Assembly: GCF_002208135.1 (NCBI RefSeq)
Contig: NZ_CP021646.1
Location: 665,501 to 729,500 of the forward strand
Source: Pseudoalteromonas piscicida
Lineage (GTDB): Bacteria > Pseudomonadota > Gammaproteobacteria > Enterobacterales > Alteromonadaceae
DNA: 64,000 nucleotides
Direction: 5' to 3'
Shown here: positions 60,729 through 64,000 of the stretch, piece after piece
Layout: every line of letters starts with the position of its first letter
How positions within the stretch are numbered: position 1 is the stretch's first letter
The notes under the pieces: model-generated
Database searches by the model: none
What the model saw: the letters and a program-made list of their open reading frames with translations, nothing else
Told to the model about the DNA's origin: nothing
Position numbers and translations under genes: made by a program

Positions 60729-61514
60729 CTACGCGCCTTTGGGTAAGCTCATATAGGCGCGTACGACTCTATCTCTAAATGCCAAATCCGCGGCCTTTTC
60801 GGCAGCTCTGTATAGTTGGCAAAACCCCTCAGGCTTTCCTGTTTGCAATAAGATGTCATCTAAAGCATCGATGCCAGTTAGGGTCTGCTTCCAGCGCGAT
60901 ACGATATTAGTGTCTGGCTCTGGCAACTGGGTGAGGATTTGCTCAGATAGCTTAAATTCACTGTCGGTGGCGACTTTGATCATATCGTCGTTGGCCGCAG
61001 CTAGCCAAGTGGCGCCTGTTGCGTTGACACAAATTAACGGTAAGTAAGGTGCGATTGCTGGAAAGGCAGTGTTTTTAAACACATCCACTTGCCAATAAGA
61101 CCGAGCAATCTTCACAAACTGCTCGAAATTAGTGATGGTTGAAAAGCCTGATTGTGCGATGGGCTTGATTTCAACTCTGGGTTTGTTTGCATTGACCGTA
61201 TCGTTTGCGGTATCTATATACCAATCTCCCACCAACATCGCATTTTGAAAGTACTCATCGCGCAGTGAACCCCATACTTTTTTGAGCTCTGTATTCTCTT
61301 TAAGCATATAACTTCTGAGCACAGATAAACGTTCTGAATTTTGCTTGAGCTCCGTGGTGACGAGTTTAAACATTTCATCGCGAATTTCCAGACAGCGACC
61401 AAGCGGGTAGGGCTTATCTGAGAAATTAGGGTATTCAGGCGCAAGCGTAAGATCGGCTTTGAGACGAAGGTTTGCCAGCTCAAAAGCGAGTAAATCTATT
61501 TCCTGTTGTGTCAA
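60729..61514 (-). CDS. Conserved hypothetical protein next to the QEGLA gene
   Basis: Soluble protein of 261 aa, no signal peptide or TM helix, family not recognised. The first third is mostly helical and charged (EIDLLAFELANLRLKADLTL, then EMFKLVTTELKQNSERL). The middle contains LVGDWYIDTANDTV, VEIKPIAQSGFSTI and VNATGATWLAAANDDM. The end is helical again (GFCQLYRAAEKAADLAFRDRVVRAYMSLPKGA). It starts 59 bp after the DUF1704 fusion gene in the same direction with no terminator between, so it is probably co-transcribed and may be a third component. Confidence 0.7.
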   Translation of the reverse strand: MTQQEIDLLAFELANLRLKADLTLAPEYPNFSDKPYPLGRCLEIRDEMFKLVTTELKQNSERLSVLRSYMLKENTELKKVWGSLRDEYFQNAMLVGDWYIDTANDTVNANKPRVEIKPIAQSGFSTITNFEQFVKIARSYWQVDVFKNTAFPAIAPYLPLICVNATGATWLAAANDDMIKVATDSEFKLSEQILTQLPEPDTNIVSRWKQTLTGIDALDDILLQTGKPEGFCQLYRAAEKAADLAFRDRVVRAYMSLPKGA

Positions 61515-61573: not shown

Positions 61574-63553
61574 CTATTTAATTGAAGAAATTAAATAACT
61601 TAGGATAGCATCTGGCTCTGGATCTCGGCTCGTATCCGGCAGATATTTAGGCCTTGTGAATATACCTTGCTCTACTAACGCATCCAATGCATCTAAGTGC
61701 GCGATGCCCGTTTTACCGAGATATAAGTTATCTAAGCTGCGAGTGTTGGCAAGCTGCACTATGTCTTTAAAGCCTTTTAAGTAGAGATGATCTTTAGTAA
61801 AGCCACCACCACGGAAAATTCGCGTGGTCAGCGCAAAGGCTTCATTGACGTTTAATACACCCGAGTCAGCCAAAAACTCATACACTTGATAGAATTTATC
61901 GCCTTTAAGCAGCATGTTGACCGCAATCACCCTAAGCGCTAATACTTTTAATCGTGTCAGATTTATTTGTCCAGATTGATACTCGCGATAGATGGCAAGC
62001 CCTTCTTGGGTGTAGGTATTGCCGGGTAGACCTAAGTGCAGCACTTTAAGTTGCTGGGCGTCAGCATTTAAGGTCGTGAGCAAGTGCACGCCAATTTCAT
62101 GCTCTATCAAGGCATTAATATCAAGCTCAGATAGCATTGCACTGCTATTTACAAGTAAAAGACGCTTACTATTGTCGACCATTGCTTTGGCAACGAGTTT
62201 GCTTGATATAGCGACCTTACAAGGTAAGCCCATGGTTTCAATTGCTTGATTAAAACGTACTAAGGCTTGCTCGGCCGTAATGTCTTTTTTTGGCAAGGTT
62301 TCGGTTTCGCGTGCGTGCAGCAAAAACGTCGCATTATTTATATCGTTGTAATCCGGCTCACCATAATAACGTAACGAGTTATACAAAAACGCTTCGCGAC
62401 CAATTTGGGTGATCAGTTCGATTTTAGTGGCGTAGCTGTCGATCACTTTACGATATAAATCTTTTACGATCGGGTCTTGGATTTTTCCAACGGGCAAGCG
62501 GTAGAGTTGCTCTTTAAACTCGTACGGGTCAATTTTCAGCGGGCGATATTTAAACGCCGGCTGATAATGACGTTTCGAGAAAAAACGGCGCTTTTCTTGC
62601 GCAATATTACTTGGGTTAACGTAATGCAGCGTTTCTAGGTTTTTGGCAATACGGTACAGCGCAGCGTCCACGTTAACCAACGCAGGGTCAAGCTGCGACG
62701 TTGATTTTGCTTTGCGAAGTGGCTTATAGCAGTGATTTTTAGCAAATGTTTTTGCCGTTTTACTCAAAGCGAGATGCATGTTGCGCTGTAGTTTTTCAAA
62801 CACTACAGGGAATAATTCGCCGCTGTTTTCGTCCATAAAGACTTTTTTCACTTCCAGCGGTACCACTAAGGTGTTATCAAAGTGGCTGGTAATATATTGC
62901 GCTTGATAACCATGGCCCTGAAAGACGGTATTTTCAGCACAATCCACCAGCTGACCTGCCAGCTTTTTTAGCCCTAGCTGCTTTTTCAGCTCATCTAATA
63001 CGGCGCGAAAACGCAAGGTATCAAGTTGTGCAGTGCCAATGTTAAAGGTTGGTGCATAAGGGTAGCTGCGAACTTGATAGTTATAGCTGTGTACATCAAA
63101 TAGCAAGCAGGCACCAAACTTACGCTCAAGCGTGGTTAAAAGCGCACTGAGTACGCGGTAATAGGCTGCATGCTTTGACAAGCTAACGTCTATGTCTGCA
63201 TTCGGTAGCGCTTGGCTCCACACTTGTTTACCCCAGGCTTCTTTGTATATCGCAAGCTCTGGCGCACGGTTAAGATCGTATTCGTAACGTGAGTCACGCG
63301 CGATAAGCGTGATGGGTAATGATTCAATCATGCCGTCGGTAAACGGATCTTCCTCTTGTAAACGCTCAGCATCGCTAATGGCGAACAAGCCTTTTAGGCT
63401 AGCACGAGTGCGGTGGCCTGCATGTACAGCGGTGGCGACATAAGGCACGTATTCTCTCACTTCGAGGTGAAAAGCGCCTTCAGCAAATTGCCCACTGATG
63501 GGTTTGCCGGCTTCAAGCGCGGCAATGATAGCTTGTTCAGATAGCATGAGCAT
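61574..63553 (-). CDS. N-formylglutamate amidohydrolase-like domain fused to DUF1704 (QEGLA) metallopeptidase domain
   Basis: Two-domain protein of 659 aa. Residues about 15-275 resemble N-formylglutamate amidohydrolases (TAVHAGHRTR, DSRYEYDLNRAPE, LLFDVHSYNYQVR), a zinc-dependent deformylase/amidase fold. Residues about 330-650 are DUF1704, known as the flavohaemoglobin expression-modulating QEGLA-motif family: zinc motif HEIGVH (HExxxH) in NALIEHEIGVHLLTTL and TQEGLAIYREY. Eukaryotic DUF1704 members (MATCAP) are tyrosine carboxypeptidases. Its start overlaps the end of the ATP-grasp gene by 17 bp. The substrate is unknown. Confidence 0.85.
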   Translation of the reverse strand: MLMLSEQAIIAALEAGKPISGQFAEGAFHLEVREYVPYVATAVHAGHRTRASLKGLFAISDAERLQEEDPFTDGMIESLPITLIARDSRYEYDLNRAPELAIYKEAWGKQVWSQALPNADIDVSLSKHAAYYRVLSALLTTLERKFGACLLFDVHSYNYQVRSYPYAPTFNIGTAQLDTLRFRAVLDELKKQLGLKKLAGQLVDCAENTVFQGHGYQAQYITSHFDNTLVVPLEVKKVFMDENSGELFPVVFEKLQRNMHLALSKTAKTFAKNHCYKPLRKAKSTSQLDPALVNVDAALYRIAKNLETLHYVNPSNIAQEKRRFFSKRHYQPAFKYRPLKIDPYEFKEQLYRLPVGKIQDPIVKDLYRKVIDSYATKIELITQIGREAFLYNSLRYYGEPDYNDINNATFLLHARETETLPKKDITAEQALVRFNQAIETMGLPCKVAISSKLVAKAMVDNSKRLLLVNSSAMLSELDINALIEHEIGVHLLTTLNADAQQLKVLHLGLPGNTYTQEGLAIYREYQSGQINLTRLKVLALRVIAVNMLLKGDKFYQVYEFLADSGVLNVNEAFALTTRIFRGGGFTKDHLYLKGFKDIVQLANTRSLDNLYLGKTGIAHLDALDALVEQGIFTRPKYLPDTSRDPEPDAILSYLISSIK

Positions 63554-64000
63554 CTTCTATTACTTGACGGAATTGGTTTTTGCGATGCGTTACTAGTTCT
63601 TTGGCGTGCACCACACTCTCTACAAAATCGATAACTTGCACTTGCAGCTTACAGCGGTTTAAACGGTTAATACGGGTTATCCCACCAGGCGAGAGTACGT
63701 TAACTTCGATAAGCTTGCCGCCTATCACGTCAATGCCAACAAAATACAAACCATCACGCACAAGCTTAGGACCGATATGCTTACATAACGCTTTTTCTTG
63801 GTTGGTGAGTTTGTGTTTCACCACTTTGCCACCGGCATGTACGTTGGCACGCACTTCATTTGCTGCAGGCACACGTTTCATGGCACCAATCGGTTCGCCG
63901 TTAAGCATTAGGATGCGAACATCACCCTCGTCGGCACCTTCAACATAGTCTTGCAAAATGACGTAGTTGCTGCCTTTACCTGCCTCATCGCCACCAATAT
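63537..64000 (-). CDS. Glutathione-synthase-like ATP-grasp ligase, cut by the window edge
   Basis: C-terminal 154 or so residues of an ATP-grasp protein; the frame is open to the right edge. It resembles GshB: QDYVEGADEGDVRILMLNGE, the basic loop KRVPAANEVRANVHAGGK, FVGIDVIGGKLIEVNVLSPGG with the Mg2+-binding E and N. It would ligate an amino acid or amine to a carboxylate with ATP. True glutathione synthase is possible, but linkage to a DUF1704 peptidase suggests a separate peptide- or protein-modifying ligase. Overlaps the fusion gene by 17 bp. Confidence 0.85.
   Translation of the reverse strand, partial: IGGDEAGKGSNYVILQDYVEGADEGDVRILMLNGEPIGAMKRVPAANEVRANVHAGGKVVKHKLTNQEKALCKHIGPKLVRDGLYFVGIDVIGGKLIEVNVLSPGGITRINRLNRCKLQVQVIDFVESVVHAKELVTHRKNQFRQVIEDAHAI

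What the first reader, a model, noticed from the sequence alone, without database searches (positions are those of the whole stretch)
61574..64000. ATP-grasp ligase paired with an amidohydrolase-DUF1704 peptidase: possible reversible residue-addition system
A GshB-like ATP-grasp gene overlaps a gene fusing an N-formylglutamate-amidohydrolase-like domain to a DUF1704 domain with an intact HExxxH and QEGLA motif. In eukaryotes, tubulin tyrosine ligase is also ATP-grasp, and DUF1704 proteins (MATCAP) remove the C-terminal tyrosine. A bacterial operon with both folds suggests a cycle in which one enzyme adds a residue to a peptide or protein and the other removes it. The overlap, motifs and domain order are read directly; the cycle is inference.
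Basis: partly seen in the sequence, partly recalled or inferred. Interest (0 to 1): 0.75.

Follow-up and report, generated by a model that had tools for sequence, protein, structure and literature searches.

The report
Bacterial peptide-bond make-and-break operon
A pair of overlapping marine-bacterium genes joins an enzyme that builds an amide bond to a protein with two different bond-cutting domains, one of them the bacterial cousin of the human enzyme that trims microtubule tails; the trio usually stays together in several bacterial phyla, so it is probably one reversible chemical switch, with a substrate that is still unknown.

Summary

The ligase is not the genome's canonical glutathione synthase: that lies elsewhere, the ligase misses the TIGR01380 cut-off, and it forms its own clade. 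Of 24 system-bearing Bacteroidota/Verrucomicrobiota genomes, none has canonical GshB over cut-off and 19 match neither GshA family. The parts co-occur (fusion in 18 of 19 ligase-bearing and 0 of 41 other Pseudoalteromonas genomes) as a fusion, as split genes, or with a second, catalytically dead FGase domain. Stand-alone MATCAPs are unlinked.

A Photobacterium damselae transcriptome lists two consecutively tagged genes with these names, induced 38- and 28-fold at low salt, one called plain GshB.

Best reading: a make-and-break module for an amide bond, probably on an acidic substrate, like RimK-RimB but with unrelated hydrolases. Partly supported; new variant of a known kind.

The parts
63537..64000 (-). 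3' part (153 codons and stop) of the GshB-like ATP-grasp ligase gene; the full 348-aa gene continues beyond the window to contig position C1:730083
61574..63553 (-). FGase-MATCAP fusion gene, 659 aa
   Evidence: AlphaFold2 model mean pLDDT 90.8
63537..63553 (-). 17-nt overlap of ligase end and fusion start (translational coupling is inferred)
   Evidence: frames overlap in 81 of 86 fused-type pairs measured, taking the first start codon of each frame (some genomes appear twice in that set)
62849..63445 (-). FGase domain (Pfam range, residues 37-235); H44, E68, R89, D93, H155 and E234 are near-invariant in the family
61592..62584 (-). MATCAP/DUF1704 metallocarboxypeptidase-like domain (Pfam range, residues 324-654)
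62084..62101 (-). HEIGVH metal-binding motif (residues 485-490)
61994..62008 (-). QEGLA motif (residues 516-520; E517 the presumed third metal ligand)

Best explanation
The locus encodes a three-activity, probably cytosolic module that makes and breaks amide bonds on one shared substrate. The GshB-like ATP-grasp ligase activates a carboxylate with ATP and joins an amino acid to it. The MATCAP domain is a metallocarboxypeptidase that removes the C-terminal residue(s), and the FGase domain is a metallo-amidohydrolase that cuts a second amide, probably next to glutamate or another acidic residue. The net effect is a reversible or self-limiting modification of a peptide, or of a protein tail, adjusted to osmotic or growth state. 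Shown: the parts, their predicted folds and intact motifs, the close genetic linkage, the separation from canonical GshB, and occurrence in genomes without recognised glutathione genes. Taken from a paper: strong induction of a like-named gene pair at low salt. Inferred: a common substrate, the direction of each reaction, the acidic substrate, the location in the cell and the physiological role.
For: Linkage seen from both sides. MATCAP side: ligase beside 12 of 13 FGase-associated MATCAP loci of the class survey, 31 of 31 of the family survey (in L143 the adjacent copy is a fragment and a full copy lies 2 kb off), and 71 of 80 named loci, 2 of the 9 misses being contig ends. Ligase side: MATCAP beside 15 of 16 ligases over the NF009110 cut-off in 398 Pseudomonadota genomes, the 16th lying at a contig end. 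Controls: neither FGase nor the ligase clade beside 0 of 26 stand-alone and 0 of 12 short MATCAPs. Genus: ligase in 19 of 60, fusion in 18 of 60, both in 18, fusion alone in 0. Alternative architectures keep the trio: fused, fully split in flavobacteria, or FGase gene plus a MATCAP with a dead FGase-like domain. Not canonical glutathione synthesis. FGase residues conserved: H44 and E68 in 127 of 128, H155 in 123 of 128. Acidic substrate hints: FGase fold neighbours include poly-gamma-glutamate hydrolase and succinylglutamate desuccinylase; an SDF (glutamate/aspartate-type) symporter upstream of the ligase in 16 of 19 flavobacterial split loci, one of them profiled; human TMCPs carry out tubulin tail processing and deglutamylation (PMC10499314, title, abstract start and passages). 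Osmotic link: PMC10308900, A0J47_RS17020 38.4-fold and RS17025 27.5-fold up at 1% against 3% NaCl. Precedent: RimK-RimB, PMC11957791 (abstract and opening).
Against: No biochemistry or genetics on these proteins was found in the held library. No substrate gene is evident in the operon. Making ligase and hydrolases together risks a futile cycle. The link between loss of the ligase and decay of the FGase active site is strong in raw counts (a key residue changed in 5 of 8 ligase-less loci against 3 of 118 others) but not significant once relatedness is counted: 7 ligase changes on the tree, same direction in 1-2 of 5 independent pairs, none opposite. The flavobacterial symporter neighbour may be plain synteny, since aroC is conserved there too. 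The low-salt data come from one species, and that the two tags are this operon is inferred. PRK05246, an NCBI glutathione synthase model, is passed (285 against 272).
Confidence: 0.5

Rival explanations
1. One-way biosynthesis: the ligase makes a small peptide metabolite, and FGase and MATCAP are later trimming steps of the same pathway (deacylation and removal of a C-terminal residue), so there is a pathway and no cycle.
For: Operon organisation and the near-constant trio fit a pathway equally well. In 12 of 19 flavobacterial split loci a rhodanese-type sulfurtransferase lies just upstream of FGase (in L246 the ligase is off the contig), and an SDF symporter upstream of the ligase in 16 of 19, which looks metabolic.
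Against: No exporter, tailoring enzyme or regulator was seen to be shared across phyla in the clustered neighbours. The ligase family extends a carboxyl end (knowledge of GshB) and MATCAP removes residues from that end, which is opposite rather than sequential chemistry.
Confidence: 0.2
2. Protein-tail cycle in the strict sense: the ligase adds a residue to the C-terminus of a particular protein, and the MATCAP domain removes it, as in tubulin tyrosination and detyrosination.
Against: The ligase is a GshB-type enzyme, whose characterised relatives act on small peptides; no TTL-family match. The PA3496-like neighbour is not found in the window's genome nor in 7 other of 12 genomes searched, most of which have the system, so it cannot be the general target.
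Confidence: 0.2
3. Glutathione side-system: the ligase is a second or alternative glutathione synthase, and FGase and MATCAP turn over glutathione or its conjugates.
For: The ligase passes the NCBI PRK05246 model (285 against 272) and the NF009110 'glutathione synthetase' subfamily (473 against 408). In six Pseudomonadota genomes with type B ligases no canonical GshB passes its cut-off and GCS2 is present in 6 of 6.
Against: Fails TIGR01380 (249 against 299). Canonical GshB is present in 48 of 54 Pseudomonadota genomes with the system. In 24 Bacteroidota/Verrucomicrobiota genomes there is no canonical GshB over cut-off and no PF04262 GshA, and GCS2 in only 5. A threonine constant in the 21 canonical rows is glycine in the 124 system ligases aligned (window G300).
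Confidence: 0.15
4. Independent enzymes kept together only by shared stress regulation, with no common substrate.
For: No direct evidence of a shared substrate exists. One genome keeps the ligase without the fusion (G926), and 7 of 80 named loci, contig ends apart, have the fusion without a ligase beside it.
Against: Frame overlap in 81 of 86 pairs; the trio persists in rearranged forms across phyla; gene fusion.
Confidence: 0.1

Closest known systems
RimK-RimB (ATP-grasp glutamate ligase with retropepsin protease on ribosomal protein S6; PMC11957791, abstract)
   Same: A bacterial ATP-grasp ligase paired with a cognate protease that undoes its product; RimK also rose at low salt in the Photobacterium data (52-fold, PMC10308900).
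   Different: The hydrolases here are two unrelated metalloenzyme folds (FGase and MATCAP), not an aspartic retropepsin; the ligase is GshB-like (RimK model TIGR00768 at 78 bits against a cut-off of 143).
RloA-RloB-RloC (retropepsin, inactive transglutaminase membrane protein, ATP-grasp; PMC12239564, abstract and passages)
   Same: ATP-grasp plus peptidase operon tied to hypo-osmotic tolerance; relatives of RloA, RloB and RloC (below their exact cut-offs, except the RloC-like TIGR02291 match) sit next to type B ligases in genus g382.
   Different: RloA is secreted and RloB is membrane-bound; no such parts were seen in the window's operon.
Tubulin tyrosine ligase and MATCAP/TMCP (eukaryotic tubulin tail cycle; PMC10499314, passages)
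   Different: Ligase of another family; fused to an FGase; bacterial; substrate unknown.
Canonical glutathione synthase GshB
   Same: Fold family, ATP-binding and many conserved residues; about 29-35% identity between the window's ligase and canonical copies in the genus.
   Different: Separate clade, different residues at diagnostic positions, C-terminal extension, operon with hydrolases.
N-formylglutamate amidohydrolase HutG
   Different: HutG equivalog TIGR02017 not reached: 24 bits against 279 for a stand-alone FGase of the system (L072), no match listed for the fusion.

Membership tests
Canonical glutathione synthase (TIGR01380) | Score over the curated cut-off | tested here: not met
   249.3 against 299.05 bits. 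The related model PRK05246 is passed, 285.2 against 272.
Canonical glutathione synthase (TIGR01380) | Groups with canonical GshB in a tree | tested here: not met
   21 canonical rows form their own clade (100/99), the window's ligase clade 91/98, type B 99/98. The order of the three clades is unresolved.
Canonical glutathione synthase (TIGR01380) | Makes glutathione from gamma-Glu-Cys and glycine | not testable with these tools
   Needs enzyme assay.
NCBIfam NF009110 GshB-like subfamily | Score over the curated cut-off | tested here: met
   473 against 408; in 398 genomes 16 matches score 436-488 and the next is 241.
MATCAP / DUF1704 (PF08014, TIGR02421) | Profile score over cut-off | tested here: met
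   PF08014 327.7 against 27; TIGR02421 380.8 against 338.65.
MATCAP / DUF1704 (PF08014, TIGR02421) | HExxxH plus downstream glutamate motif | tested here: met
   HEIGVH 485-490 and QEGLA 516-520; the metal-motif residues are invariant in alignment A1.
MATCAP / DUF1704 (PF08014, TIGR02421) | MATCAP fold | tested here: met
MATCAP / DUF1704 (PF08014, TIGR02421) | Carboxypeptidase activity | not testable with these tools
   Needs enzyme assay.
FGase (PF05013) | Profile and fold | tested here: met
HutG N-formylglutamate deformylase (TIGR02017) | Score over the equivalog cut-off | tested here: not met
   No TIGR02017 match for the fusion at E <= 0.001; a stand-alone system FGase (L072) scores 24.3 against 278.75.
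Tubulin tyrosine ligase family | TTL profile match of the ligase | tested here: not met
   No TTL family among Pfam matches at E <= 0.001.
RimK-RimB system | RimK-family ligase | tested here: not met
   TIGR00768 78.3 against 143.4.
RimK-RimB system | Ligase opposed by a cognate protease on one substrate | not testable with these tools
   Linkage shown; reaction not.

The most novel reading that the evidence does not exclude
A widespread bacterial counterpart of the microtubule tail cycle: an ATP-grasp ligase extends the C-terminus of an acidic protein tail or peptide, and a MATCAP carboxypeptidase fused to an FGase reverses it, as an osmotically tuned switch. MATCAP would then have bacterial relatives that work against ATP-grasp ligases apart from tubulin.
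Probability: 0.15. Interest if true: 0.9.

Novelty: new variant of a known kind. Interest (0 to 1): 0.6.

Why it matters
MATCAP-family proteins occur in many bacteria under an uninformative name. This locus ties one branch to a specific ligase and a specific second hydrolase, which gives a concrete in vitro test. It also suggests that a headline gene of a low-salinity transcriptome, read there as ordinary glutathione synthase, is a paralogue in this operon. If the cycle is real, bacteria run another ATP-grasp-plus-peptidase switch beside RimK-RimB, with chemistry related to the tubulin code.

Tried and rejected
Canonical GshB as the answer: rejected by cut-off, tree and coexistence, with the type B exception noted. 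HutG/histidine degradation: the HutG equivalog is not reached. Anti-phage defence: no PADLOC match for either protein at E <= 0.001. Precursor peptide or small substrate gene next to the operon: 2,071 small reading frames were compared; the largest printed cluster held 9 loci, and the 12 printed looked like antisense, out-of-frame or tail pieces of larger neighbouring frames, which I judged by eye and did not check one by one. A real small gene, PA3496-like, sits upstream of the ligase in Colwellia-like loci only. Ligase loss driving FGase decay: suggestive raw counts (corrected for missed ligases), not significant on a tree. A single origin of type A and type B ligases: neither shown nor rejected (AU p 0.083 for A+B, 0.32 for B+canonical). 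An earlier run (p 0.015) used some wrong reading frames for canonical rows and is discarded. PDB search with the single fusion sequence gave no useful hit; the profile did. The dead FGase-like domain of type B matched the fused FGase profile (E 5.6e-13, probability 98%) but the stand-alone FGase profile only weakly (E 2.6e-4, probability 42%); the fold comparison then supported it.

Literature: DUF1704 occurs in 1 held paper (listing only) and QEGLA in 4 (listings; only PMC10308900 opened). The search for two of N-formylglutamate amidohydrolase, ATP-grasp, TIGR02421, COG3930 and QEGLA found none. PMC4431377 and PMC13269789 were searched for passages without useful result; searches are listings. 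Iyer et al. 2009 on amidoligases, recalled as the likeliest place for an earlier mention, is not held and was not read, so I do not claim that the association is unpublished.

Counting errors found and corrected: my ORF filter hid the ligase behind longer antisense frames in L069, L075 and L213; direct tblastn restored them, changing 10 of 13 to 12 of 13 and 70 of 80 to 71 of 80. It also hid FGase genes in L068, L125 and L129, restored.
Full report
What is there. The fusion gene is at 61574-63553 (minus strand, 659 aa); the ligase gene overlaps its start by 17 nt and leaves the window. The window lies at C1:665501-729500 of a two-contig, 5.3 Mb genome; the best named protein matches are Pseudoalteromonas. 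The flanking sequence gives the whole ligase, 348 aa with a GTG start. Upstream on the same strand is a chemotaxis receptor (L002:8232-9932), so the operon proper seems to be two genes. The 261-aa frame 59 nt downstream (60729-61514) has no Pfam match.

The ligase is not the cell's canonical glutathione synthase. It scores 473 against NF009110 (cut-off 408), 285 against PRK05246 (cut-off 272, passed) and 249 against TIGR01380 (cut-off 299, failed). The genome has another GshB scoring 445.6 against TIGR01380, and a GshA (PF04262). In 398 Pseudomonadota genomes the 16 NF009110 matches over cut-off score 436-488 bits and the next best is 241. An IQ-TREE tree of 57 rows has three clades: the window's type (91/98), type B (99/98) and canonical GshB (100/99); their order is unresolved. 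At one aligned column the 21 canonical rows have threonine and the 124 system ligases glycine (window G300), while many general GshB residues are shared.

Conservation of the trio. Class survey: 39 of 274 genomes have a MATCAP match; regions of all 39 were fetched (window's own, the rest). Thirteen loci, the window included, are of the FGase-associated kind and 12 of them have the ligase beside it; L066 is the exception. Family survey: 59 of 246 genomes; 31 long-frame loci including the window, all 31 with the ligase, though in L143 the adjacent copy is a 149-aa fragment and the full copy lies about 2 kb away. Controls: 26 stand-alone loci and 12 short-MATCAP loci have neither FGase nor the ligase clade; three of them hold a weak ATP-grasp-like match of under 70 bits. 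One more locus (L076) holds only MATCAP fragments with stops. Starting from the ligase: 15 of 16 over-cut-off loci have a MATCAP beside them (one cut by a contig end), and the 16th ligase itself starts at a contig end. 71 of 80 have the ligase on the same strand within five frames, 2 of the 9 misses being contig ends. Ligase and fusion (or split pair) are seen together in Pseudomonadota, Bacteroidota, Planctomycetota (L212) and Verrucomicrobiota (L221); a Desulfocapsa MAG (L208) has the fusion without this ligase and a spirochaete MAG (L190) is cut at the contig end. Genus: the ligase is in 19 of 60 Pseudoalteromonas genomes and the fusion in 18, always with the ligase (in G951 the fusion frame has a stop); G926 keeps the ligase alone. 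Fisher p is 2e-14 but ignores relatedness. Patchy presence within the genus fits gain or loss as a unit.

Glutathione context. Of 79 genomes asked, one was not held; the other 78 carry the system (G105 the fusion alone, as far as the fetched region shows). 48 have canonical GshB over cut-off: 48 of 54 Pseudomonadota and 0 of 24 Bacteroidota/Verrucomicrobiota. Of those 24, none has GshA PF04262 and 5 have GCS2 PF04107, four of them at only 88-95 bits. So 19 of 24 have the ligase with no recognised source of gamma-Glu-Cys. MAGs can be incomplete, but seven of the 19 carry strain titles of isolates (Empedobacter tilapiae, E. falsenii, Algoriella, Winogradskyella, Oceanihabitans, Gilvibacter, Hyunsoonleella; titles with the mapping). 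Against this reading, six Pseudomonadota genomes (G522, G546, G598, G614, G618, G676; two of them under 90% complete) have no GshB over that cut-off but have GCS2, so their type B ligase could serve glutathione.

Physiological leads. PMC10308900 (abstract and passages read) compares Photobacterium damselae at 1% and 3% NaCl. A0J47_RS17020 'Glutathione synthase GshB' is 38.42-fold and A0J47_RS17025 'Flavohemoglobin expression-modulating QEGLA motif protein' 27.51-fold up at low salt, both on chromosome II; RimK is 52.24-fold up. The authors link the first to V. cholerae gshB. That the two consecutive tags are this operon is my inference: the P. damselae protein in the database is a fused FGase-MATCAP with intact motifs (P0105), and the Photobacterium loci L175-L178, L180 and L227 have the ligase directly before the fusion. 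I did not see the RM-71 sequence itself. Separately, in one genus (g382) type B ligases are followed by relatives of RloA, RloB and RloC. In P. aeruginosa loss of RloC or RloB rescues the hypo-osmotic defect of mutants lacking the secreted Rlo peptidases (PMC12239564, passages), which gives the epistasis design for the next step. In flavobacteria an SDF-family symporter (best NCBIfam match GltP, below its cut-off) lies upstream of the ligase in 16 of 19 split loci, and a rhodanese-type sulfurtransferase just upstream of FGase in 12 of 19; the counts are by sequence cluster, with one and three representatives profiled. aroC is also conserved there, so part of this is synteny.

How it most likely works. 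By family knowledge GshB-type ligases phosphorylate a peptide's carboxyl end and attach an amine, so they lengthen that end by one residue; MATCAP-type enzymes remove residues from a carboxyl end (PMC10499314, passages). The two chemistries are opposite. FGase hydrolyses the amide of an acylated glutamate in its characterised relatives. I therefore favour one shared acidic substrate that the ligase extends and the fusion resets (0.5), without deciding between small peptide and protein tail. RimK-RimB (PMC11957791, abstract and opening) is the closest working precedent.

Limits. No activity, structure or mutant of any member was found in the held library. The family, class and named sets overlap in part, so their counts should not be added. 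The 80 named loci are the best matches to this query and favour its own type.

Noticed in passing
L118:8163-8405, L144:10137-10379, L152:10079-10336, L155:9790-10053 (all minus): In Colwellia-like loci an 80-87 aa protein (PA3496 family in NCBIfam, one of three tested just under its cut-off) with an acidic C-terminal tail holding tyrosine and tryptophan lies directly upstream of the ligase on the same strand; a conceivable local target. It is absent from the window's genome at this sensitivity.
   Followed up: partly
L002:14235-15935 (minus), about 6 kb beyond the window end: A 566-aa putative lipoprotein with an over-cut-off Peptidase_M49 match (PF03571, 61 bits against 21) lies a few genes upstream of the operon.
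   Followed up: no
Pseudoalteromonas genomes: The fusion (18 of 60) and a stand-alone MATCAP in frames of 427-456 aa (22 of 60) are almost mutually exclusive; only G954 has both.
   Followed up: no
G926:C91:23879-24925 (L280:2880-3926): Ligase kept with no trace of the fusion in the 11 kb fetched; in G951 the fusion frame carries a TAA.
   Followed up: partly
L067:1835-3980; L143:8609-12024: Ligase duplicated: two tandem type B ligases in L067, and a 149-aa fragment plus a full copy in L143.
   Followed up: no
L121, L126, L127, L128 (genus g382): Type B systems sit directly beside relatives of the RloA/RloB/RloC osmotic-tolerance operon.
   Followed up: partly
Vibrio/Photobacterium/Thalassotalea-like loci, e.g. 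L174-L178, L180, L184, L189: Fused-type operons often lie just after a gene resembling maoP with a divergent LysR (hdfR-like) gene; the names maoP and hdfR are recalled and not from a call.
   Followed up: no
window 60729-61514 (minus): 261-aa frame 59 nt downstream of the fusion on the same strand, no Pfam match; a frame of the same length is beside the operon in L172.
   Followed up: no
PMC10308900, tags A0J47_RS17020 and RS17025: A transcriptome paper treats RS17020 as ordinary GshB; it is probably the paralogue in this operon, which would change the interpretation of one of its top genes.
   Followed up: partly
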